Origin: Candidatus Promineifilum breve | GTDB taxonomy: Bacteria > Chloroflexota > Anaerolineae > Promineifilales > Promineifilaceae | Direction: 5' to 3' | Assembly: GCF_900066015.1 (NCBI RefSeq) | Contig: NZ_LN890656.1 | Location: forward strand, 434,001-498,000 | DNA: 64,000 nucleotides | Shown here: one piece after another, positions 6,602 through 47,522 of the stretch | How positions within the stretch are numbered: position 1 is the first letter of the stretch | Layout: each line of letters opens with the position of its first letter | Translations under genes and position numbers: made by a program | Notes under the pieces: generated by a model | Told to the model about the DNA's origin: nothing | What the model saw: only the letters and a program-made list of their open reading frames with translations | Databases searched by the model: none

Positions 6602-8080
6602 TTACAATCCAACGACTGACGGGCGGTTAGTTCCCATACGCTCCCGCCGCCAGGCGAAGAGCGCGATCACCAGCGCCACGGCCGCCAACCCGGCCGACAC
6701 CAACGCCACGTTCTGCATCCCGGCGGCGATAGCCGCGGGCGGGGCCGCTTGCACGCCGCCGGCGACCTCGCCCCCCGCCGCACGCATGACCCCGGCGGCC
6801 CAGATGGCCCCCAGCACGGCAAAGCCCACCGTCTGGCCCATGCTGCGCGTGATCGCCAGCAGGCTCGACGACACGCCCAGCCGCTCGCGGGGCACGCTGC
6901 CCATGATGGCGCTGTTGTTGGGCGATTGGAACAGGCCCACGCCGATGCCCAGCGGCAGGTAGCGCAACATGAAGCCGATGGCCGTCGTCTCGGCCGACAG
7001 TGTGGACAGGATTAGAAAGGACGCCACGACCACCACCAACCCCATGACCGAGATCGGCCGGCTGCCGAACCGATCCGACAGCAGGCCGGAGATAGGCGAC
7101 GTGATGCCCAGCCCGATGGGCACGACGGCCACCAACAAGCCCACCTGCTGCACGCTATAGCCCAGCCCCAACTCCAGATAGAACGGCATGAGGGCGATGA
7201 CGGCGATGGCAATAAAAACTAGCAGGCCGGTGATGATGTTGACCCGGAACAGCTCGATGCGAAACAGGCTGGGCGGGATGATCGGCTGCGGGTGGCGGCG
7301 CTGCAGGATGATAAACGTCGCCAGGAAGAAGACGGCCACGACGAACAAGCCCAACGCCTGCGGGCTGGTGAAGCCCTGCCGCTGGCCGGTGGTCAGGCCC
7401 AGCAGGAAAGCCAGCAGGAACACGCACAACGTGGCCGCGCCGCCGAAGTCGAACACCTGCCCGCCCGGCGGCCGCGTCTGGGGAATGTTGCGCCAGGCCA
7501 GATAGGTGCCCAGGATGCCGATGGGCACGTTGACGAAAAAGATCCAGTGCCACGACAGATTCTCGATGATCAGCCCGCCCAGCGTGGGGCCGGTGACGAT
7601 GCCGATGGAGACGATGGAGCCACTGATGCCCAACGCCCGGCCGCGCTCGCCGGGCGGGAAGGCGTCGGTGATGATCGCCATGCCCAGGGCCAGGATGAGC
7701 GCCCCGCCGGCCCCCTGCACGATGCGGGCGGCGATGAGCCAGCCGACGGTGGGCGACAGGCCGCACAGCAGCGAGCCGACAGTGAAGACGATGAAGCCGG
7801 AGTTGTAGAGTATCTTGCGGCCGTACATATCGGCCAGGCGGCCAACGACGGCCTGCAACGTGGTCAGCGTCAGCAGATAGACCAGCACGACCCATTGCAC
7901 GGTGGCGAAATCGGTATTGAGTTCGGCGCTCAGCGTGGGCAGGGCGACGTTGACGATGCTGCCGTCGATGGTCGCCAAAAAGATGCCCATGGCGATGGCC
8001 GACATGACCAGCCATTTGCGGCTGTAATCGTGCTCGGCCGCGCCGGCTGCCACTGGCGACAGTTGTTCCTGTTTTGCCAT
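6602..8080 (-). CDS. MFS exporter, DHA2 (EmrB/QacA) family
   Basis: A 492-residue protein with the 14-helix layout of drug:H+ antiporter family 2. Motif A (GRLADMYGRKILYN) follows helix 2, and motif C-like GPTLGGLI lies in helix 5. The ATATIDGSIVNVALPTL-type first helix (here ATIDGSIVNVALP) is typical of EmrB/QacA. It probably exports lipophilic toxic compounds from the inner membrane. No periplasmic adaptor gene is adjacent, so it may work alone. The ATG at 8080 follows GAGGATT; a GTG nine bases upstream would add three residues. A hairpin followed by a T-rich run sits in the short leader (8099-8116). Confidence 0.9.
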   Translation of the reverse strand: MAKQEQLSPVAAGAAEHDYSRKWLVMSAIAMGIFLATIDGSIVNVALPTLSAELNTDFATVQWVVLVYLLTLTTLQAVVGRLADMYGRKILYNSGFIVFTVGSLLCGLSPTVGWLIAARIVQGAGGALILALGMAIITDAFPPGERGRALGISGSIVSIGIVTGPTLGGLIIENLSWHWIFFVNVPIGILGTYLAWRNIPQTRPPGGQVFDFGGAATLCVFLLAFLLGLTTGQRQGFTSPQALGLFVVAVFFLATFIILQRRHPQPIIPPSLFRIELFRVNIITGLLVFIAIAVIALMPFYLELGLGYSVQQVGLLVAVVPIGLGITSPISGLLSDRFGSRPISVMGLVVVVASFLILSTLSAETTAIGFMLRYLPLGIGVGLFQSPNNSAIMGSVPRERLGVSSSLLAITRSMGQTVGFAVLGAIWAAGVMRAAGGEVAGGVQAAPPAAIAAGMQNVALVSAGLAAVALVIALFAWRRERMGTNRPSVVGL

Positions 8081-9277: not shown

Positions 9278-9413
9278 ATACCCCAATCACATTCCACGAT
9301 TACTCAAATTCGGTTAAGATTCAAATCGTGCGCTGCTGCGTATTGTACAATAGAGGTTGGTGAGCAGAAATCGCCGCTAAGGCAATCTGCTCCAGGCTTT
9401 GAATGGATTGACA

Positions 9414-10022
9414 ATGCGCCATGTCGCACCGCTGGAACCCGACATGGAATTTTCGACCGACGATAGCGATGAGGAATTGATGGCCCGCGTCACCGCGCGT
9501 GACTCGGCCGCTTTCGAGCGCCTCTATGACCGCTACGCGCCGATCGCGCTGGGCATCATCGTAAGAATCATACAGGATCGAGCCGAGGGAGAAGAAGTCT
9601 TGCAGGAATCGTTTTGGCGGGTCTGGACGCAGGCGGCGACCTATGACTCCGAAAAGGGGCCGTTCCGCGCCTGGCTGTTCAGCATCGCCCGCCGGCAGGC
9701 ATTGGACCTGTTGCGACGGCGCAACGTGCGGCCCCAGGCGGCGCGCGACGAGTCCGAGGAGCGGCGCTATGAACAAGCGCCCGCCTCCGACGCGGCCGTG
9801 CCCGACGTGGCCGAGCAAGCTATCGCCGCCCAGCAGGTGCGCGGCGCGCTGGTCCGCCTGTCCGACGAGCAATTCCAGGTGCTGGAACTGGCCTTTTTCA
9901 AGGGCCTCACGCGCCAGGAAATCGCCCAAACGACCGGCCTGCCGCTGGGCACGGTGCATACCCGCGCCCGGCTGGGACTGCAAAAACTGCGCTCGATCCT
10001 GGGAGATTCGGGTGGAATGTGA
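9414..10022 (+). CDS. ECF-type RNA polymerase sigma factor, SigK-like
   Basis: A 202-residue protein. Region 2 spans about residues 20-95 (DSAAFERLYDRYAP, EEVLQESFWRVW, GPFRAWLFSIARRQALD). Region 4 is at about 140-190 (ALVRLSDEQFQVLELAFFKGLTRQEIA, then LGTVHTRARLGLQKLR, the -35 recognition helix-turn-helix). There is no region 3, as expected for group 4 sigma factors. The stop lies four bases before the anti-sigma gene, so the two are co-transcribed and probably translated in a coupled way. The ATG at 9414 is preferred; a TTG at 9399 and an ATG at 9444 are alternatives. It likely drives its own operon and the DUF4331 genes downstream. Confidence 0.9.
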   Translation: MRHVAPLEPDMEFSTDDSDEELMARVTARDSAAFERLYDRYAPIALGIIVRIIQDRAEGEEVLQESFWRVWTQAATYDSEKGPFRAWLFSIARRQALDLLRRRNVRPQAARDESEERRYEQAPASDAAVPDVAEQAIAAQQVRGALVRLSDEQFQVLELAFFKGLTRQEIAQTTGLPLGTVHTRARLGLQKLRSILGDSGGM

Positions 10023-10025
10023 GTC

Positions 10026-10934
10026 ATGGAACGCAATACGCGTATCGAAGAGGAGCTATTTCCGTTTTACGTCCTCGACGCTCTAACCGCTGAAGAGCGG
10101 CTGGAGGTGGACGATTACGTGGCCGGCAACCGCGAGGCCCGCGCCCGGCTGGCGCAATTGACGCCGGCCGTGGCCGACCTGAGCGCGGCGGCGACGACGC
10201 CCATCACCCCGTCGCCGGCGGTGAAGGCCGGGCTGCTGGCCCGCATCGAGGCCGAGGGCCAGGCCGTCGCGCCGCCGGCCGCCGCGCCACGACCGGCGGC
10301 CCCTGCCCCCCGCCCCGCGCCACGCCGCGCCCAACCCGCGCCGGTCGCGCCCCGGCGGTCGTGGTGGCAGGTGTTCGGCCCGGCGCTGGCCGGGCTGGCG
10401 GCGCTGGTGCTCATCTTCTCGGCCGTCGTCGTGGGGCGCTATAGCCGCCGGGTCGATGAATTGCAAGGCCAACTCGCCACGCTGGAAGAGAGCAGCCAGA
10501 CCCTCGAAGCCCAACTCGACGCGCTGGAAGGCGAAAATCAGACCTTGCGCCGCGAACTCTCGGCCCGCGATGACCAACTGGCCGCTCTGCTGACCCCCGG
10601 CGCTATCACCGTGGCCCTGGGTGACCTGACCGGCGAGCACCCCGAATCCCACGGCGCGCTGACCATCGATCCGGCCAGCGGCGAGGGCGTGCTGTCGGTC
10701 GCCAATTTGCCGCCGCTGACGGCCGATCAGACCTATCAGGCCTGGCTCATCGTCGATGGCGCGCCGGTCAGCGCGGGCACGTTCGCCGTGGACGGCGACG
10801 GCGCGGCCCACCATACCATTAGCGGCGCGCAACCCGGCGCGTTCGAGGCGGTCGGCGTCTCCCTTGAACCGGCCGGCGGCAGCGACCAGCCTACCCCCGA
10901 TCAGATCATCCTGCTGGCCGGCTTCTCCAGCTAG
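10026..10934 (+). CDS. Anti-sigma factor, RskA family
   Basis: A 302-residue membrane-bound regulator. The N-terminal 55 residues (LFPFYVLDALTAEERLEVDDYV) form the sigma-binding helical domain typical of anti-sigma-K factors. No HxxxCxxC zinc motif is present. A Pro/Ala-rich linker (about 80-110) leads to one transmembrane helix (about 114-137), then a coiled coil (about 143-190) and an extracytoplasmic RskA C-terminal domain (about 195-302, with TYQAWLIVDGAPVSAGTF). It should hold the sigma factor at the membrane until regulated proteolysis releases it. It is followed by a perfect intrinsic terminator. Confidence 0.9.
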   Translation: MERNTRIEEELFPFYVLDALTAEERLEVDDYVAGNREARARLAQLTPAVADLSAAATTPITPSPAVKAGLLARIEAEGQAVAPPAAAPRPAAPAPRPAPRRAQPAPVAPRRSWWQVFGPALAGLAALVLIFSAVVVGRYSRRVDELQGQLATLEESSQTLEAQLDALEGENQTLRRELSARDDQLAALLTPGAITVALGDLTGEHPESHGALTIDPASGEGVLSVANLPPLTADQTYQAWLIVDGAPVSAGTFAVDGDGAAHHTISGAQPGAFEAVGVSLEPAGGSDQPTPDQIILLAGFSS

Positions 10935-14474: not shown

Positions 14475-16244
14475 ATGTCGCGCTCTCGCCGTTCCCGTAA
14501 ACTCATCGCCGTCGCTCTGGCGTTGCTGGCCCTGCTCATCGTCGGGGTGGCCAACGCCCACCCATTGGGCAACTTCACCGTCAGCCGCTACAGCGCCCTG
14601 ACCCTGCATGACGCGGCCGTGGACGTGTTCTACATTGTCGATATGGCCGAAATCCCCACCTTCCGCGAGCGGCAGGCGATGGACGGCGACGGCGACGGCG
14701 CGGTGTCGGCGGCCGAGGAAGCCGAATGGCTGGCGGCGACCGTGCCCGACCTGGCCGGCAAGCTGCGCCTGACGGTGGACGGCGCGCCGGTCGCTCTGGC
14801 CGCCCAGGGCCACACATTGACCTTCCCGCCCGGCCAGGGGGAGCTGCTCACGTTGCGGCTGGAACTGCGGCTGGCGGCGGCCCTGCCGCCCGTGGCCGAG
14901 GGGCAGGCGCGGGCCATCGATTACGAGGACGGCAATTTCGCCGGGCGGCTGGGCTGGCAGGAAGTCGTGGCCTCGGCCGGCGCCGGCTCGCTGCTCGATT
15001 CGACCGTGCCCGCCACCGGCCTGAGCGACGAGTTGCGCGCCTATCCCGAAGAGCTGCTGCAATCGCCCCCGGCCGTCAATCGGGCGACGGTGCGCCATGC
15101 CCCGGCGGTCGTGGGCGTGGCCGCAGCGGCGGGCGGGGCGAGTGACACGGCGGCCGTGGTCGCCAATCGCTTCGGCTCCGACGAGTTCGCCAATTTGCTC
15201 AACCGCACGCTGGACACGCCCGGCGCGCTGGCGGCGGCGCTGCTGGTGGCCGTGGGGCTGGGCGCGGCCCACGCCCTGACGCCCGGCCACGGCAAGACCA
15301 TCGTCGGCGCTTACCTCGTCGGCTCGCGCGGCAAGGCCCGCCACGCGCTGCTGCTGGGGGCGGTGACGACCATCACCCACACCGCCGGGGTCTTCGCGCT
15401 GGGCTTCTTCGTGCTGCTGGCCTCGGAGTTTATCCTGCCGGAGCGGCTCTATCCGTGGCTGGGGGTGATGTCGGGGCTGCTGGTGGTGGTCATTGGCCTG
15501 TCGATCCTGCGCGGCCACGTGGGCCATTGGCTGGCCCGCCGCCGGGGCGAGGCCGGCCATGATGAGCACTTTCACTACCATTTCGGGGGTGGGCATTCGC
15601 ATGGGCCGAATGGGCATGGACACCATGACCACGGACCACGGACGACTGACCACGGGCCGGTGGGGGTGACGGGGCTGGCGATGGCCGCGGCGCATCAGCC
15701 CGTGGCGGCCGGCGGCACGTTGGCTTTCGCCGGGGTGGCGAATGGGAGGACGGCGGCTGTTGCCATCGCCCGCGACCACGCCCACCCGCATCACGAGCAC
15801 GGTCATGCCCATGACCACGATCACCCGCATGACCATGACCATGCGCACGATCACGATCACCCGCATGATCACGCGCACGACCACGATCATGCCCATGACC
15901 ACGCCCCATCCGGCGACGCCCTGAGCACACGCAACCTGTTGGCGTTGGGCATCTCCGGCGGCCTGCTGCCCTGCCCCTCGGCGCTCATCCTGATGCTCAG
16001 CGCCATCGCCCTGCATCAGGTGGGGCTGGGCATCGCCCTCATCGTCGCCTTCAGCATCGGGCTGGCCGGTGTGTTGACGGCCATCGGCCTGGTCATGGTC
16101 TATGCCGGCAAGCTGCTGGAGCGGCTGCCCATCCGCCACTCCGCGCTCACGACGCGCTTCCTGCCCATGGCCAGCGCGACGTTTATCACTCTGGCCGGGC
16201 TGCTGATCACCATTCGGGCGCTGGCTGAGGCAGGCGTGCTTTAA
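14475..16244 (+). CDS. Nickel/cobalt transporter, NicO/HupE-RcnA-like, with His-rich loop
   Basis: A 589-residue protein. The signal peptide (about 10-29) is followed by HPLGNFTVSRYS and an extracytoplasmic beta-domain with an EF-hand-like DGDGDGAVSAAEE (about 69-81). The membrane part starts near 255. Helices carry the NicO signatures HALTPGHGKTIVGAYLVG (about 272-289) and THTAGVF, then after a cytosolic loop GISGGLLPCPSALILML (about 493-509). The loop (about 358-477) is extremely rich in His and Asp, arranged as HDHDHPHDH-type repeats, for metal binding. It should move Ni2+, Co2+ or a related metal, import or efflux undetermined. GGAGGA precedes the ATG. Confidence 0.88.
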   Translation: MSRSRRSRKLIAVALALLALLIVGVANAHPLGNFTVSRYSALTLHDAAVDVFYIVDMAEIPTFRERQAMDGDGDGAVSAAEEAEWLAATVPDLAGKLRLTVDGAPVALAAQGHTLTFPPGQGELLTLRLELRLAAALPPVAEGQARAIDYEDGNFAGRLGWQEVVASAGAGSLLDSTVPATGLSDELRAYPEELLQSPPAVNRATVRHAPAVVGVAAAAGGASDTAAVVANRFGSDEFANLLNRTLDTPGALAAALLVAVGLGAAHALTPGHGKTIVGAYLVGSRGKARHALLLGAVTTITHTAGVFALGFFVLLASEFILPERLYPWLGVMSGLLVVVIGLSILRGHVGHWLARRRGEAGHDEHFHYHFGGGHSHGPNGHGHHDHGPRTTDHGPVGVTGLAMAAAHQPVAAGGTLAFAGVANGRTAAVAIARDHAHPHHEHGHAHDHDHPHDHDHAHDHDHPHDHAHDHDHAHDHAPSGDALSTRNLLALGISGGLLPCPSALILMLSAIALHQVGLGIALIVAFSIGLAGVLTAIGLVMVYAGKLLERLPIRHSALTTRFLPMASATFITLAGLLITIRALAEAGVL

Positions 16245-37863: not shown

Positions 37864-38511
37864 ATGCGTCGCCTCACCCCTCTGCGATTCTTCTGGCTGG
37901 CCTCTCTGGGTCTGGCCCTGGTCTACGGCTGGACGCTGACCGAACGGCTGACGGTCACGGTGAGCGTGGCCGATGGGCGCTGCACGGCCGTTCTCTATGA
38001 CCGTACCAGCGCCATCGACTGCCCCGGTCTGGGCAGCGGCGCGCTCCTGACCTATGCCGAGCGGCAACCTGTCGCCGGTTTTGTTCCCCAGGCGGCGTGG
38101 CAGGTCGTGGAACTCTCGGCCTTCGGCGAAGCGCTGCCGCCAACCGCCCCCCTGCCCACCCGGTTCGAGGCGACCGGCCGGCTGGCGCGGCCGTACCAAC
38201 CGGCCGGTCTGATCTTCCAACGGCCGGGCGAAACGTCGGGCTGGGCGTTCGTCATCGACGGCCCGCAGCGGCGCGGCGTGTGGTGGACGTGGCGGGAGGG
38301 AGCGCTTGGCGAGCCGTTGCGTGGCATCCCGCTGGATCGGCCGTTAACCGTCCAAGCCCAGGCGTTCGCCCGGCAGTTGTTGCGCGGGTGGTGGGGGGCG
38401 GTGGGGTTGGTGGTGGTGGGTTTGGGGCTTAGGGTGATCGGGAACAGAGTTGGGCGATGGCGAAAAGGCGGGATTGGCGAACAAATCCAGAAAGACCAAA
38501 GCGGTGATTGA
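37864..38511 (+). CDS. Hypothetical membrane protein
   Basis: A 215-residue protein of unknown family. There is one N-terminal hydrophobic helix (about 8-27) and one near the C-terminus (about 175-195, GWWGAVGLVVVGLGLRVIG), with an extracytoplasmic region between them (two Cys at about 40 and 53 could form a disulphide) and a charged cytoplasmic tail. It begins 26 bases after meaB and may share its transcript. No functional motif recognised. Confidence 0.65.
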   Translation: MRRLTPLRFFWLASLGLALVYGWTLTERLTVTVSVADGRCTAVLYDRTSAIDCPGLGSGALLTYAERQPVAGFVPQAAWQVVELSAFGEALPPTAPLPTRFEATGRLARPYQPAGLIFQRPGETSGWAFVIDGPQRRGVWWTWREGALGEPLRGIPLDRPLTVQAQAFARQLLRGWWGAVGLVVVGLGLRVIGNRVGRWRKGGIGEQIQKDQSGD

Positions 38512-38554
38512 GAAGATACTGGTCAGAACGGGCCGCCAGCCGCGTCGTGTTTTT

Positions 38555-38690
38555 GAAGGTAAACAAATAAATGAACACCTCCGCCCGATGGATAAATCCA
38601 TCGGCTGGTACATAAAACCGCGTTAAAACGCGTTGCCGGCGCTTCCGCAACCGGCTTCAGCCGGGTTTAGTGTAGCGGCGGGTTTATGCG
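38555..38690. repeat. Repeat family R8, copy 1
   Basis: AAACAAATAAATGAACAC, then GATGGATAAATCCATCGG, ACCGCGTTAAAACGCG and AACCGGCTTCAGCCGG: a series of small hairpins. The whole unit recurs at 38950 in the same orientation. Confidence 0.85.
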
Positions 38691-38692
38691 TT

Positions 38693-38912
38693 TTGACAAA
38701 TAAATACGAGATTTTTTGCACTATAAGATTTACCGCCATATGTCCGGATTTAGCGTACTCTGGAAGAGCAATCGACCCCATATATAGGCGATTTCCCTAT
38801 AGTGCAACAACTCTACGGATATAGGCTCGTAGGTGGAGCTTCCAGCTCCACGTCCGCCCAGTGGGTGGAACTGGAAGTTCCACCTACGTGGATAGCCGCA
38901 CTAATTTGTCAA
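38693..38912. repeat. Repeat family R6, copy interrupted by a nested element
   Basis: Outer arms TTGACAAATAAATACG (38693-38708) and TTTGTCAA (to 38912) flank the inner palindrome GTGGAGCTTCCAGCTCCAC ... GTGGAACTGGAAGTTCCAC (38829-38887). Uninterrupted counterpart at 51455-51565. Confidence 0.85.
38709..38813. mobile_element. 105-bp MITE-like element nested in R6
   Basis: Terminal inverted repeats GATTTTTTGCACTATA (38710-38725) and TATAGTGCAACAACTC (38798-38813) match at 14 of 16 positions. The direct repeat TACG flanks it (38705-38708 and 38814-38817). The copy of the host repeat at 51455 has a single TACG at this site and no insert. No coding capacity, so it would depend on a transposase elsewhere. 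Confidence 0.75.
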
Positions 38913-38949
38913 AGAGCATGAGCCCGCCTGCCAACCGCGCCGGATCATT

Positions 38950-39084
38950 GAAGATAAACAAATAAATGAACACATCCACACGATGGATGAATCCATTCCC
39001 TGCTACACAAAACCGCGTTAAAACGCGTTGCCGGAGCTTCTGCAACCGGCTTTAGCCGGGTTTTGTGTAGCAGCGGCGGGTTTG
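38950..39084. repeat. Repeat family R8, copy 2
   Basis: Same order of small hairpins as copy 1, with scattered substitutions; ends in GGTTTTGTGTAGCAGCGGCG. Confidence 0.85.
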
Positions 39085-39249
39085 AACCCGCCTGCCGCCC
39101 GTGCCAAGAATATGCTATATATTTTGTTAAACCGAACTCGCGCCCTACGAACCTCAGAATAACTCAGAATAACCGTGTAACGGTATTACAATGTATAAAT
39201 GCGGGAATAGTATAAATGCGGGAATAATATAGTTGGCGACATATTGGCT

Positions 39250-41736
39250 ATGCGAAATTTACATAAACAAAGGAGCTTGGCGCAGTTGCTTATGATTGCT
39301 CCCATCCTCTTCACCTTCGCCATCGCCACCCACGTTGCCATCCACGTCCTCGAACGCGCCCCCCACGTCCAGGACTCGGTGACCTATCTCTTCCAGGCCC
39401 AAACGCTGGCCCGCGGCCGCCTGACCGCGCCTGCCCCGCCGCTGGCCGAAGCCGAGGCCACGCCCCACTTCGCCCAGGAGTTCCTGCTCGTGCGCCACGG
39501 CCGCTGGTTCGGCAAGTACACCCCCGGCTACCCGATGCTCCTGGCGTTGGGCGTACTTGTCCGCGCCCCCTGGCTGGTCAACCCGCTGCTGGCCGCGCTG
39601 GCGGTGGCGGTGATGTTCCCGTTGAGCAAGGAGTTGATGGGCGACCGCCGACGACAGACCGCTGACCACGTATTGACGGGCGACCGCCGACGACAGACCG
39701 CTGACCACGTATTGACGGGCGACCGCCGACGACAGACCGCTGACCACGAATTGACTGATGATGGCCGACAGTCAACAATCGACACCCAAAAAACAACCCA
39801 CACCCAAATAACTGACCCGCTGCCCACTCATCTACTGCTACCCCTCCTCCTGGCCCTCTCGCCCTTCTTCCTCATCATGTCCGGCAGCCTGATGGCTCAC
39901 ACCGCCGAATTATGGTGGACACTGCTCTTCATGTTGGCCTGGGCGCGGACGTGGCGCGGCGCGGTGGGACAAGGCGCGGCGGGGCAAAGCGGACAGCGCG
40001 GCCAAAGGCACTGGCCCGTCATGTCCGGCAGCCTGACGGCCCACACCGCCGAATTATGGTGGACACTGCTCTTCATGTTGGCCTGGGCGCGGACGTGGCG
40101 CGGCGCGGTGGGACAAGGGGGAAAGCGCGGCCAAAGGCACTGGCCCGTCATGTCCGGCAGCCTGATGGCCCGCACCACCGAACGATGGTGGACATCGCTC
40201 TTCATGTTGGCCTGGGCGCGGACGTGGCGCGGCGCGGTGGGACAAGGGAGAAAGCGGGGCCAAAGGCACTGGCCCGTCATGTCCGGCAACCTGATGGCCC
40301 ACACCGCCGAACTATGGTGGACATCGCTCTTCATGTTGGCCTGGGCGCGGACGTGGCGGGGCGCGGCGGGGCAAGGCGAACAGCACGGCCAAAGGCACTG
40401 GCCCGTCATGTCCGGCAGGCTGATAACCCACACCGCCGAACGATGGTGGACATCGCCCTTCATGTTGGCCTGGGCACGGGCCTGGCGCGGTGCGGCGGGG
40501 CACGGCGAACAGCGCGGCCAAAGGCACTGGCCCGTCATGTCCGGCAGCCTGATGGCCCACACCGCCGAGCTATGGTGGACAACGCTGTTCATGTTCGCCT
40601 GGGCGCGGGCCTGGCGCGGCGCGGCGGGGCACGGCGAACAGCGCGGCCAACGGCGCTGGCCCATCCTGGCCGGAATCGCCTTCGGCCTGCTCTTCCTGAC
40701 CCGCCCCTTCACCGCCGCGCTCATCGGCCTGACCTACGGCCTGACCCTGCCCTTCATCTACGCCTTTCCCCTGCGCCCCCGCCCCCCTGCTCCCCTGCCC
40801 TCTTCCTCCCCCCTACGCCCCCGCTCCCCTGCACCCCTGCCCTCTTCCTCCCCCCTGCGCCCCCGCTCCCCTGCCCCCCTGCTCTTCCTAGCCACCGCCG
40901 CCCCCTTCCTCCTCGCCCTGTTCGCCTATCAGGCGGCCGTCACCGGCGACCCTCTGACCGACCCGCGCCTGCTCTACTGGCCCTATGACCGCATCGGCTT
41001 TGGGCCGGACAGCGGCGAGCCGCAGAATGCCTTCACCTTCGCGCCCACGGCCGCCGGCCCGGCCATCCAATGGCTCACTGACCCCAGCCAGCCGCCGCGC
41101 GGCCACAGCCCGGCGCGCGGCCTCTACAACCTGGGCGTCAATCTGGACGCGCTGGAAAACATCTTGTTCGGCTGGCCGGCGCTGTTCAGTCTCAGCTTTG
41201 TCTGGCTGGCGTTCCTCTTGCGGCGGCCGACGCCCACCGATTGGCTGCTATTGCTCATGGTCGCCGCGGTGGGGGCGGGGCACGTGGCCTATTGGGCGTC
41301 GGGCGTGGCCTATGGCCCGCGCTATCTGTTCGCCGCGCTGCCGGCGCTGATCATCCTGACCGCCCGCGGCTTGGGCGCGCTGGCCGCCGTCGTCGGTCGC
41401 CGGCCCACGGTCGTCATCCTCGTCGCCCTGGCCGCCTACAGCTTGATGACCCTGCCCGGCCGCGTCGCCTCTTACCGCGATTACAACTTCGTCGATCCGG
41501 GCGTACGCGCCGCCGTGGCAGAAAGTGTCGAACCGCCGGCCCTGGTCTTCATCACCGCCAGCGCGACCGACTGGTGGGAGTACGGCGCGTTCTTCAGCGG
41601 CAATACCCCCTGGCTCGACGGCCCGGTGCTCTACGCCCGCGACCTGGGCCCAGACGAAAACGCCCGTCTGGCCCGCGAATTCCCCGGCCGCGCCGTCTAC
41701 CTGTGGCGCGATGGGCAGTTACAAACTGGGCCTTGA
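39250..41736 (+). CDS. GT-C type membrane glycosyltransferase (GT39-like) with internal tandem repeats
   Basis: An 828-residue multi-helix protein. The N-terminal half-helix, then HVQDSVTYLFQAQTLARGRL with an early-loop Asp (about 38), and GRWFGKYTPGYPMLLALG (about 84-101) fit GT-C glycosyltransferases using polyprenyl-phosphate sugars. Three in-frame arrays interrupt it: three 13-residue units (131-169), six 43-48-residue units each with a hydrophobic ELWWTxLFMLAWA helix (210-472) and three Pro/Ser-rich 14-residue units (507-548). The rest (550-828) has further helices and a soluble tail. Six copies change the helix count and perhaps topology, so activity is uncertain. The ATG at 39250 is preferred over a TTG six bases earlier. 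Confidence 0.78.
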   Translation: MRNLHKQRSLAQLLMIAPILFTFAIATHVAIHVLERAPHVQDSVTYLFQAQTLARGRLTAPAPPLAEAEATPHFAQEFLLVRHGRWFGKYTPGYPMLLALGVLVRAPWLVNPLLAALAVAVMFPLSKELMGDRRRQTADHVLTGDRRRQTADHVLTGDRRRQTADHELTDDGRQSTIDTQKTTHTQITDPLPTHLLLPLLLALSPFFLIMSGSLMAHTAELWWTLLFMLAWARTWRGAVGQGAAGQSGQRGQRHWPVMSGSLTAHTAELWWTLLFMLAWARTWRGAVGQGGKRGQRHWPVMSGSLMARTTERWWTSLFMLAWARTWRGAVGQGRKRGQRHWPVMSGNLMAHTAELWWTSLFMLAWARTWRGAAGQGEQHGQRHWPVMSGRLITHTAERWWTSPFMLAWARAWRGAAGHGEQRGQRHWPVMSGSLMAHTAELWWTTLFMFAWARAWRGAAGHGEQRGQRRWPILAGIAFGLLFLTRPFTAALIGLTYGLTLPFIYAFPLRPRPPAPLPSSSPLRPRSPAPLPSSSPLRPRSPAPLLFLATAAPFLLALFAYQAAVTGDPLTDPRLLYWPYDRIGFGPDSGEPQNAFTFAPTAAGPAIQWLTDPSQPPRGHSPARGLYNLGVNLDALENILFGWPALFSLSFVWLAFLLRRPTPTDWLLLLMVAAVGAGHVAYWASGVAYGPRYLFAALPALIILTARGLGALAAVVGRRPTVVILVALAAYSLMTLPGRVASYRDYNFVDPGVRAAVAESVEPPALVFITASATDWWEYGAFFSGNTPWLDGPVLYARDLGPDENARLAREFPGRAVYLWRDGQLQTGP
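39640..39756 (+). repeat. Three 39-bp tandem repeats in coding sequence
   Basis: Units at 39640, 39679 and 39718 encode GDRRRQTADHVLT (last unit HELT). The first two are nearly identical in DNA. They contain GACCGCTGACCAC, which resembles the dispersed R1-type motif. Confidence 0.95.
39877..40665 (+). repeat. Six tandem repeats of 129 bp in coding sequence
   Basis: Unit starts: 39877 (144 bp), 40021, 40150, 40279, 40408 and 40537 (129 bp each). Each encodes MSGxLxxHTAExWWTxLFMLAWARxWRGA followed by a GQG/GHG-rich, basic connector ending RHWPV. Units differ by scattered substitutions, so duplication is not very recent or has been followed by selection. Confidence 0.95.
40768..40893 (+). repeat. 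Three 42-bp Pro/Ser-rich tandem repeats in coding sequence
   Basis: Units at 40768, 40810 and 40852 encode PLRPRSPAPLPSSS-type sequence; the third diverges at its end. The DNA is almost pure pyrimidine on the plus strand (C-rich). Confidence 0.9.
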
Positions 41737-46393: not shown

Positions 46394-46712
46394 AATTGGC
46401 TACTGATTTAGACGGAAGAAACGGATTCAAGAAGATTAAGAAATGGCTACGGATTGATACGGACGATACGGATTTAACAGGTCAATCCGTTCTTTCCGTT
46501 TACATTAGTAGCCAATTCTTCATCGTCTAAGAATTGGCTACGGATTGATACGGACGATACGGATTTAACAGGTCAATCCGTTCTTTCCGTTTAGATCAGT
46601 AGCCAATTCTTCATCGTCTAAGAATTGGCTACGGAGTTAGACAGACGAGACGGATTTATTAAATCATCAGGATAATCCGTTCTTTCCGTTTAAATCCGTA
46701 GCCAATTCTTCA
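46394..46712. repeat. Repeat family R4, tandem array
   Basis: After a partial copy, units starting at 46440, 46531 and 46622 repeat with a 91-base period. Each runs from GAATTGGCTACGGAT to GTAGCCAATTCTTCATC, so each is itself a palindrome. The 324-base gap between the acyl-CoA dehydrogenase and SDR genes holds nothing else. Confidence 0.9.
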
Positions 46713-47522
46713 TCCCAACAGTTGCTTCATCCGGTTATACATGAACCGCGTGGCCCGTTTGGGGCTGAGGCGATAGAGCCAGTTCATCATCTTGGCGTCG
46801 TTGCCGATGTAGACCTGAAAGGCGTCGTTCTCGATGCCATTGAGGATGATCTCGGCCGCGTCTTCGGCCGAGGTGGTGGGGAAGCTCTGCGCCGCGTCAT
46901 CGGTCGCCGCCGCCGGGGCGGCAATGACCACGCCCGAGTTCTGACTGATATTGGTGGCGATGGCCCCCGGAAAGACGACCGTAACCCGCACGTTGGTCTC
47001 GGTTAGCTCGGAAAACAGCCCCTCGGTCAGCAGCTTCACCCCCGCCTTCGACGCGCCATAGAGCGATTGGCCGGGCACGGGGAAGAAGCCGCCCATGCTG
47101 GAGACGTTGACGATGTGGGCCGCCGGCCGGGTAAGCAGATGGGGCAAAAAGGCCTTGGTCATGTAGATGACGCCGTAGAGATTGACGTTGAGCACGCGCT
47201 CGATGGCGTCATAGTGCAACTCATTCAGGCGCACGAACGGCTGGATGATGCCGGCGTTGTTGATGATGCCATCGACCGCGCCGTGGGCGGCGATGACCGC
47301 CGCCGGGAGGGCCGCGACGGCCGCGCGGTCGCTCACATTCACCACGTGGCGGCTGACTTTGTCCCGCTGCGGCCCAGCCAGCTCATATGTCTCGTTGAGC
47401 GTCGTCTCGTTCAGGTCCGCGGCGGCCACCCGCGCCCCGCGCTTGAGCAGCGCCAACACCAGCGCCCGCCCCATCCCGCTACCCGCGCCCGTCACCACGA
47501 TTACTTTGTTGTTGACTTTCAT
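46710..47522 (-). CDS. Short-chain dehydrogenase/reductase
   Basis: A 270-residue SDR. TGAGSGMGRAL (residues 11-21) is the NAD(P) motif, NNAGI follows (about 92-96), Ser in VNVSSMGG, and the catalytic pair YGASKAG (Tyr about 158, Lys about 162). Classic SDR length and cytoplasmic location. An MNWLYRLSPKRATRFMYNRMKQ tail extends beyond the core fold. The oxidised or reduced substrate is not predicted. It is not in an obvious operon; the gap to YggT contains repeats. Confidence 0.9.
   Translation of the reverse strand: MKVNNKVIVVTGAGSGMGRALVLALLKRGARVAAADLNETTLNETYELAGPQRDKVSRHVVNVSDRAAVAALPAAVIAAHGAVDGIINNAGIIQPFVRLNELHYDAIERVLNVNLYGVIYMTKAFLPHLLTRPAAHIVNVSSMGGFFPVPGQSLYGASKAGVKLLTEGLFSELTETNVRVTVVFPGAIATNISQNSGVVIAAPAAATDDAAQSFPTTSAEDAAEIILNGIENDAFQVYIGNDAKMMNWLYRLSPKRATRFMYNRMKQLLG

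What the first reader, a model, noticed from the sequence alone, without database searches (positions are those of the whole stretch)
39877..40665. Six tandem copies of a membrane-helix-containing 43-residue unit inside a GT-C glycosyltransferase
Units start at 39877, 40021, 40150, 40279, 40408 and 40537; five are exactly 129 bp and the first 144 bp. Each encodes one hydrophobic helix plus a basic Gly-rich connector. A normal GT-C protein would contain one such segment (the last unit runs straight into GIAFGLLFLTRPFTAALIG). Copy-number change of one helix at a time would flip downstream topology with each odd step, so the array could be a topology or length switch, or mark a decaying gene. Units differ by amino-acid substitutions while the frame is kept, suggesting tolerated or selected expansion.
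Basis: partly seen in the sequence, partly recalled or inferred. Interest (0 to 1): 0.75.

Follow-up and report, generated by a model that had tools for sequence, protein, structure and literature searches.

The report
Six-fold repeated helix in glycosyltransferase gene
A sugar-transferring membrane enzyme of a Chloroflexota bacterium carries six head-to-tail copies of one membrane-helix segment where all twelve relatives examined carry one; the gene still looks functional, so this is most likely a tolerated local DNA expansion on a repeat-rich replicon, and an unusual natural case of how much a membrane protein can absorb.

Summary
An 830-codon ORF (39244-41736) contains six in-frame units at the stated positions, 144 bp then 5 x 129 bp. 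Each encodes one TM-like helix plus a basic Gly-rich linker. The ORF is a GT-C glycosyltransferase: the orthologue's AlphaFold model matches PMT, STT3, ArnT and AglB at Z 20-26. The unit is TM4 plus the TM4-TM5 cytoplasmic loop.

All 12 relatives aligned have one unit, so the six-fold state is specific to this lineage among the genomes held. The array edges share a 10/12-bp direct homology (CATC-n-TG-n-CCGG), and all internal junctions are identical. That fits one duplication by short homology followed by unequal exchange.

The gene is not decaying. The core is conserved, no stop has arisen, and units evolve at omega about 0.41 against 0.18 in the core. Units 3 and 5 carry helix-breaking L-to-R or L-to-P changes. 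Extra copies are probably surplus segments near the cytoplasmic face; the topology switch is not supported, but copy number per strain could not be tested.

Context: the same gene has two more in-frame arrays made of dispersed repeats, both in cytoplasmic loops. Palindromic repeats separate it from its N-terminal domain. Its replicon (C2) has about five times the tandem-array density of C1.

The parts
37864..38511 (+). Separate ORF (215 aa) homologous to the N-terminal domain that in the relatives is fused in one ORF to the GT-C part
   Evidence: blastp 26-45% identity to the N-terminal part of 6 relatives plus a partial match to L032; MeaB gene upstream conserved in L047
38512..39243 (.). Dispersed palindromic repeats that separate the two halves; two 147-bp copies (38535-38681, 38930-39076, 86%) around a 24-bp-arm palindrome (38828-38888)
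   Evidence: 75 matching places in the own genome including itself; repeats and palindromes; in L047 24 aa span what is about 860 bp here
39244..41736 (+). GT-C glycosyltransferase ORF, 830 aa (TTG start; ATG at 39250, or TTG 39286 with AAGGAG 10 nt upstream, are alternatives)
   Evidence: ORF; alignment with 12 relatives; GT-C fold of the orthologue model
39634..39755 (+). In-frame 39-bp x3.1 array (GDRRRQTADHVLT) in the TM2-TM3 cytoplasmic loop, made of a dispersed repeat; absent from relatives
   Evidence: TRF; 8 other places in the genome; alignment
39873..39884 (+). Left edge homology CATCATGTCCGG
   Evidence: read from sequence; 10/12 identical to 40662-40673
39877..40020 (+). Unit 1 (144 bp): the copy that AlphaFold places as native TM4 (pLDDT about 90-95)
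40021..40149 (+). Unit 2 (129 bp)
40150..40278 (+). Unit 3 (129 bp): invariant His replaced by Arg, L-to-R in the helix
40279..40407 (+). Unit 4 (129 bp)
40408..40536 (+). Unit 5 (129 bp): L-to-R and L-to-P in the helix, least hydrophobic copy
40537..40665 (+). Unit 6 (129 bp): its right end keeps the form that runs into TM5
40662..40673 (+). Right edge homology CATCCTGGCCGG
   Evidence: read from sequence
40768..40889 (+). In-frame 42-bp x3 array (PLRPRSPAPLPSSS) in the TM6-TM7 cytoplasmic loop, made of a dispersed repeat; absent from relatives
   Evidence: TRF; 57 matching places in the genome including itself; alignment

Best explanation
Steps 1-3 and 6 are shown; steps 4-5 are inferred. 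(1) The gene encodes a PMT/ArnT-like GT-C glycosyltransferase, and the unit is its TM4 helix plus the following cytoplasmic loop. (2) In this lineage the segment was duplicated and then amplified to six copies; relatives keep one. (3) The array sits in a gene and on a replicon that accumulate in-frame repeats: two other arrays lie in neighbouring cytoplasmic loops, palindromic repeats separate the N-terminal domain, and C2 is about five-fold enriched in tandem arrays. (4) The likely mechanism is a first duplication between the two 12-bp edge homologies, then unequal RecA-type exchange or slippage between long identical stretches; because 129 is a multiple of 3, each step keeps the frame. (5) The enzyme stays functional: unit 1 or unit 6 supplies TM4, and the surplus copies form a long, partly non-spanning, basic insert mostly near the cytoplasmic face, with downstream topology kept. 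(6) The copies are under weak constraint, consistent with a tolerated rather than a required feature.
For: One copy in 12 of 12 relatives, and no extra copies seen in the search of 98 genomes. Conserved neighbours, MeaB and beta-carbonic anhydrase, show it is the same locus. Edge homology 10/12 and identical internal junctions AGGCACTGGCCCGTC|ATGTCCGGC against CGGCGCTGGCCCATC|CTGGCC at the right end. Longest exact stretches between neighbours 22-77 bp. Unit omega 0.41, with 2dlnL about 5.8 against omega = 1; core omega about 0.18 under the same model. Only 7 window-specific changes at otherwise invariant core columns, against 3-18 in sisters. AlphaFold: unit 1 pLDDT 90-95, units 2-5 about 28-47, TM5 95. 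Dispersed-repeat origin of the other insertions. In-frame repeats also in LeuRS, another PMT_2 protein and DUF2298. Array density, period 30 bp or more: 14.3 per 100 kb on C2 against 2.7 on C1. An orthologue (G041) has a dispersed repeat in frame in the same TM4-TM5 loop.
Against: Units are not free of constraint (omega below 1, no stops), so some function for the extra copies is possible. Activity, expression and topology were not measured. The gene has lost its fusion to the N-terminal domain and no sigma-70-like promoter was found in the gap, so expression is unproven.
Confidence: 0.72

Rival explanations
1. The array is a selected feature: the extra helices form a membrane or membrane-surface module, for instance for oligomerisation, partner binding or lipid-carrier access, whose copy number tunes the enzyme.
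For: Weak purifying selection between units (omega 0.41); no stops; units 1, 2, 4 and 6 keep the hydrophobic core; divergence between units (dS 0.07-0.28) implies the array has persisted.
Against: No relative has it; two of six units carry helix-breaking changes and one has lost the invariant His; AlphaFold gives no confident structure for units 2-5.
Confidence: 0.13
2. Copy number works as a topology or length switch: gain or loss of one helix inverts downstream helices and turns the enzyme on or off.
For: Each unit is one helix-like segment; neighbouring units share exact stretches of 22-77 bp that could recombine.
Against: Basic linkers on every unit and two poorly hydrophobic units make parity switching unlikely; a crude score favours native parity at all settings. 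Downstream loops have strong charge bias (cytoplasmic loop net +6, long outer loop net -4). No frame switching is possible with 129 bp.
Confidence: 0.05
3. The gene is a decaying pseudogene in which repeats accumulate without consequence.
For: Separated from its N-terminal domain by repeats; three arrays in one gene; helix-breaking substitutions in units 3 and 5.
Against: 830 codons open although unit divergence implies roughly 10 nonsense mutations expected under neutrality (estimate from mean dS 0.19 and a 4-7% nonsense fraction); core as conserved as in sisters; core omega 0.18, averaged over all lineages.
Confidence: 0.07
4. The array or its copy number is an assembly artefact.
For: Tandem repeats are known to cause assembly errors (PMC6868369); no reads could be examined.
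Against: Units are distinct, each with private variants; the genome is in 3 contigs of 5.03 Mb; an artefact would be expected to give identical copies or a collapsed array (inference).
Confidence: 0.03

Closest known systems
GT-C glycosyltransferases (PMT, STT3/AglB/PglB, ArnT; Pfam PMT_2 PF13231)
   Same: Fold of the single-unit orthologue matches them (Pmt4 Z 26, STT3 Z 24, ArnT Z 22); 8 of 12 aligned relatives match PMT_2
   Different: The window copy has TM4 plus loop six times, two other loop arrays, and a separate N-terminal domain; it gives no Pfam match of its own
Intragenic in-frame tandem repeats (cf. Verstrepen et al. 2005, cited in PMC6868369; PMC2996958)
   Same: Period a multiple of 3, head-to-tail copies inside an ORF, probable origin by recombination or slippage
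   Different: Usual cases are surface, linker or solenoid repeats (general knowledge); here the unit is a single helix of a polytopic enzyme core
In-frame insertion of dispersed elements, e.g. Rickettsia palindromic elements (PMC10969869)
   Same: The 39-bp and 42-bp arrays in this gene, and the TM4-TM5 insert of the G041 orthologue, are dispersed repeats read in frame
   Different: The 129-bp unit itself is not dispersed: it derives from the gene's own TM4 sequence and occurs nowhere else in the genome

Membership tests
GT-C glycosyltransferase | GT-C multi-helix fold with catalytic acidic residue in the first extracytoplasmic loop | tested here: met
   Orthologue model: the leading VIA-align rows are all GT-C enzymes, Z up to 26; PHVxD Asp44 invariant in 13 of 13 sequences. 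The catalytic role of such an Asp is from general knowledge of the fold.
GT-C glycosyltransferase | Transfers sugar from a polyprenyl-phosphate donor | not testable with these tools
   needs biochemistry
Pfam PMT_2 (PF13231) | Significant match to the family profile | tested here: not met
   No match for the window protein at E up to 1; 8 of 12 relatives match. It is filed as GT-C by homology and fold, not as a PMT_2 match.
Intragenic in-frame tandem repeat | Head-to-tail copies inside an open frame, period a multiple of 3 | tested here: met
Intragenic in-frame tandem repeat | Copy number varies between strains | not testable with these tools
   No second genome of the species was found; other species have one copy
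Dispersed in-frame element (RPE/MITE-like) | Same unit present at many unrelated loci | tested here: not met
   129-bp unit found only at this locus in the own genome
Phase-variable contingency locus | Repeat change shifts the reading frame | tested here: not met
   129 bp = 43 codons; every copy change keeps the frame

The most novel reading that the evidence does not exclude
The multiplied TM4 segment is a selected, copy-number-tunable membrane module of a GT-C enzyme, by which the bacterium adjusts enzyme topology or reach by gaining or losing whole helices.
Probability: 0.08. Interest if true: 0.75.

Novelty: new variant of a known kind. Interest (0 to 1): 0.42.

Why it matters
Membrane-protein evolution is thought to be constrained by topology: adding a single helix should invert what follows. 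Here a conserved polytopic enzyme has gained five extra copies of a helix-bearing segment, an odd number, and the rest of the protein has stayed conserved. It is a natural test of how positive-inside signals and marginal hydrophobicity let a protein absorb such an insertion. It also shows how far one genome can tolerate in-frame repeat growth, even in the essential LeuRS.

Tried and rejected
Pfam and NCBIfam on the window protein gave nothing even at E up to 1; the relatives and the fold gave the assignment. A profile search of PDB sequences gave nothing. Foldseek on the six-unit model was weak, best E 5.8e-3, though the leading hits were GT-C; the single-unit orthologue resolved it. The single genome-contig scan found only one relative. 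Decay was rejected. A dispersed-element origin of the 129-bp unit was rejected. Other helix-containing arrays: none in about 1.26 Mb sampled had a clear membrane-helix unit inside a membrane enzyme; the most hydrophobic other units look like a non-genic repeat ORF or solenoid-type proteins. Plasmid collection: only a 35% match in Thermomicrobium roseum. Literature searches for tandem duplication of single TM helices found no direct precedent in the open-access library; this is weak evidence of absence.

Full report
Observation. TRF scores the array 1085. Units are 84.5-96.9% identical and each has private variants, so they are real, separately evolving copies and not one sequence stamped by an assembler. 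The genome is 5.03 Mb in 3 contigs and the gene is single copy.

What the gene is. Pfam and NCBIfam give no match for the window protein. Relatives do: 8 of 12 match PMT_2. The AlphaFold model of the single-unit orthologue L032 (pLDDT 79, pTM 0.86) matches Pmt4 (Z 26), STT3 (Z about 24), ArnT (Z 22) and AglB (Z about 21), with Foldseek E 1e-6 to 1e-3 for the same enzymes. It is a GT-C glycosyltransferase. Residues invariant across the 13 sequences, including PHVxD and the DxxGFG stretch, are intact in the window copy.

What the unit is. The alignment places the unit on TM4 (MSGSLMAHxAELxW...) plus the TM4-TM5 loop. All 12 relatives, seven from the same family and five from other families of the class, have one. 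In the search of 98 genomes no relative shows a second copy. Orthology at the locus is supported by conserved neighbours: MeaB upstream in G005 (74% identity) and a beta-carbonic anhydrase downstream in G005 and G007.

How it arose. The left edge (CATCATGTCCGG) and right edge (CATCCTGGCCGG) share 10 of 12 bases, a plausible seed for the first duplication. All five internal junctions read AGGCACTGGCCCGTC|ATGTCCGGC, while the right end keeps CGGCGCTGGCCCATC|CTGGCC. So three differences are shared by all internal junctions and absent at the right end, which fits a first duplication followed by copying of one changed unit, that is, amplification in at least two stages (inference). Neighbouring units still share exact stretches of 22-77 bp, enough for further unequal exchange in principle.

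Is the gene alive? Between units omega is about 0.41 under MGK (log-likelihood -343.8 free, -346.7 at omega = 1, 2dlnL about 5.8). The core gives about 0.18 under the same model. Gene conversion between units could bias the first figure, and the core value averages over all lineages. In the core the window copy has 7 unique changes at columns otherwise invariant among six relatives, against 3-18 in those relatives. Mean dS between units is about 0.19; an unconstrained gene of this length would be expected to gain on the order of ten nonsense mutations in that time (estimate using the 4-7% nonsense fraction implied), and none is present. Decay is therefore unlikely, although recent loss of function cannot be excluded.

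Topology. Units 1, 2, 4 and 6 resemble the native helix in hydrophobicity; units 3 and 5 do not (L-to-R, and R plus P). The scale values used were recalled from memory and the weighting is crude. Every linker carries 2-5 basic residues. An exhaustive score of which units span favours an odd number of spanning units, hence native orientation of TM5 onward, at all 15 parameter settings tried. AlphaFold places unit 1 as TM4 with high confidence and leaves units 2-5 at pLDDT 28-47; because the relatives were aligned to unit 1, this does not prove that unit 1 rather than unit 6 is the functional TM4. The parity-switch idea is therefore not supported, but not disproved.

Context. The same gene carries a 39-bp x3 array and a 42-bp x3 array, both in frame, both absent from relatives, and both made of sequence found elsewhere in the genome. 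With the usual GT-C topology (from general knowledge), the three arrays lie in three successive cytoplasmic loops. In the relatives where the 5' part of the gene is available, the protein is one ORF with an N-terminal domain; here that domain is a separate ORF (37864-38511), and the 0.7-0.8 kb between consists largely of dispersed palindromic repeats with 75 matching places in the genome. In a 600-kb sample of each large contig, tandem arrays of period 30 bp or more occur at 14.3 per 100 kb on C2 (the window's contig) and 2.7 on C1. In-frame arrays also occur in leucyl-tRNA synthetase, in a second PMT_2 protein right after its PMT_2 match, and in a DUF2298 membrane protein. In the orthologue of G041 the same TM4-TM5 loop holds an in-frame dispersed repeat. 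This loop appears to be a tolerant site.

Verdict. A real, lineage-specific, in-frame expansion of a helix-bearing segment in a probably functional enzyme; most likely tolerated recombination on a repeat-prone replicon. The kind (intragenic tandem repeat) is known; a single helix of a polytopic enzyme as the unit is an unusual variant, and no direct precedent was found in the limited literature search.

Noticed in passing
G000:C2 versus C1 (loci L089-L148): Contig C2 (1.0 Mb) has about five times the density of tandem arrays (period 30 bp or more) of C1 (4.0 Mb), and about 47 of the 75 places matching the gap repeats; it may be a second replicon with different repeat dynamics.
   Followed up: partly
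L097 8837-11446 (- strand), array 10206-10315: Leucyl-tRNA synthetase (on C1) with an in-frame 42-bp x2.6 array (VGVNIPVHPNSPPP) at the end of its editing-domain match.
   Followed up: partly
L100 6411-8522 (- strand), array 7665-7914: A second PMT_2 protein in the same genome with an in-frame 132-bp x1.9 repeat directly after its PMT_2 match, probably the same cytoplasmic loop.
   Followed up: partly
L100 8486-11464 (- strand), array 9358-9522: DUF2298 membrane protein with an in-frame 87-bp repeat (TQITQIEEEE...).
   Followed up: no
L045 3512-3640 (- strand): Orthologue in G041 has an in-frame insert in the TM4-TM5 loop that matches 17 other places in that genome.
   Followed up: yes
38512-39243: Two 147-bp copies of a palindromic dispersed repeat flank another palindrome in the gap that separates the N-terminal domain ORF from the GT-C ORF.
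   Followed up: partly
15792-15904: Short tandem repeat (CACGACCACGATCATG) inside an ORF that would read His/Asp-rich in one frame, possibly a metal-binding loop.
   Followed up: no
46437-46714: 91-bp x3 array, not a multiple of 3, outside long ORFs.
   Followed up: no
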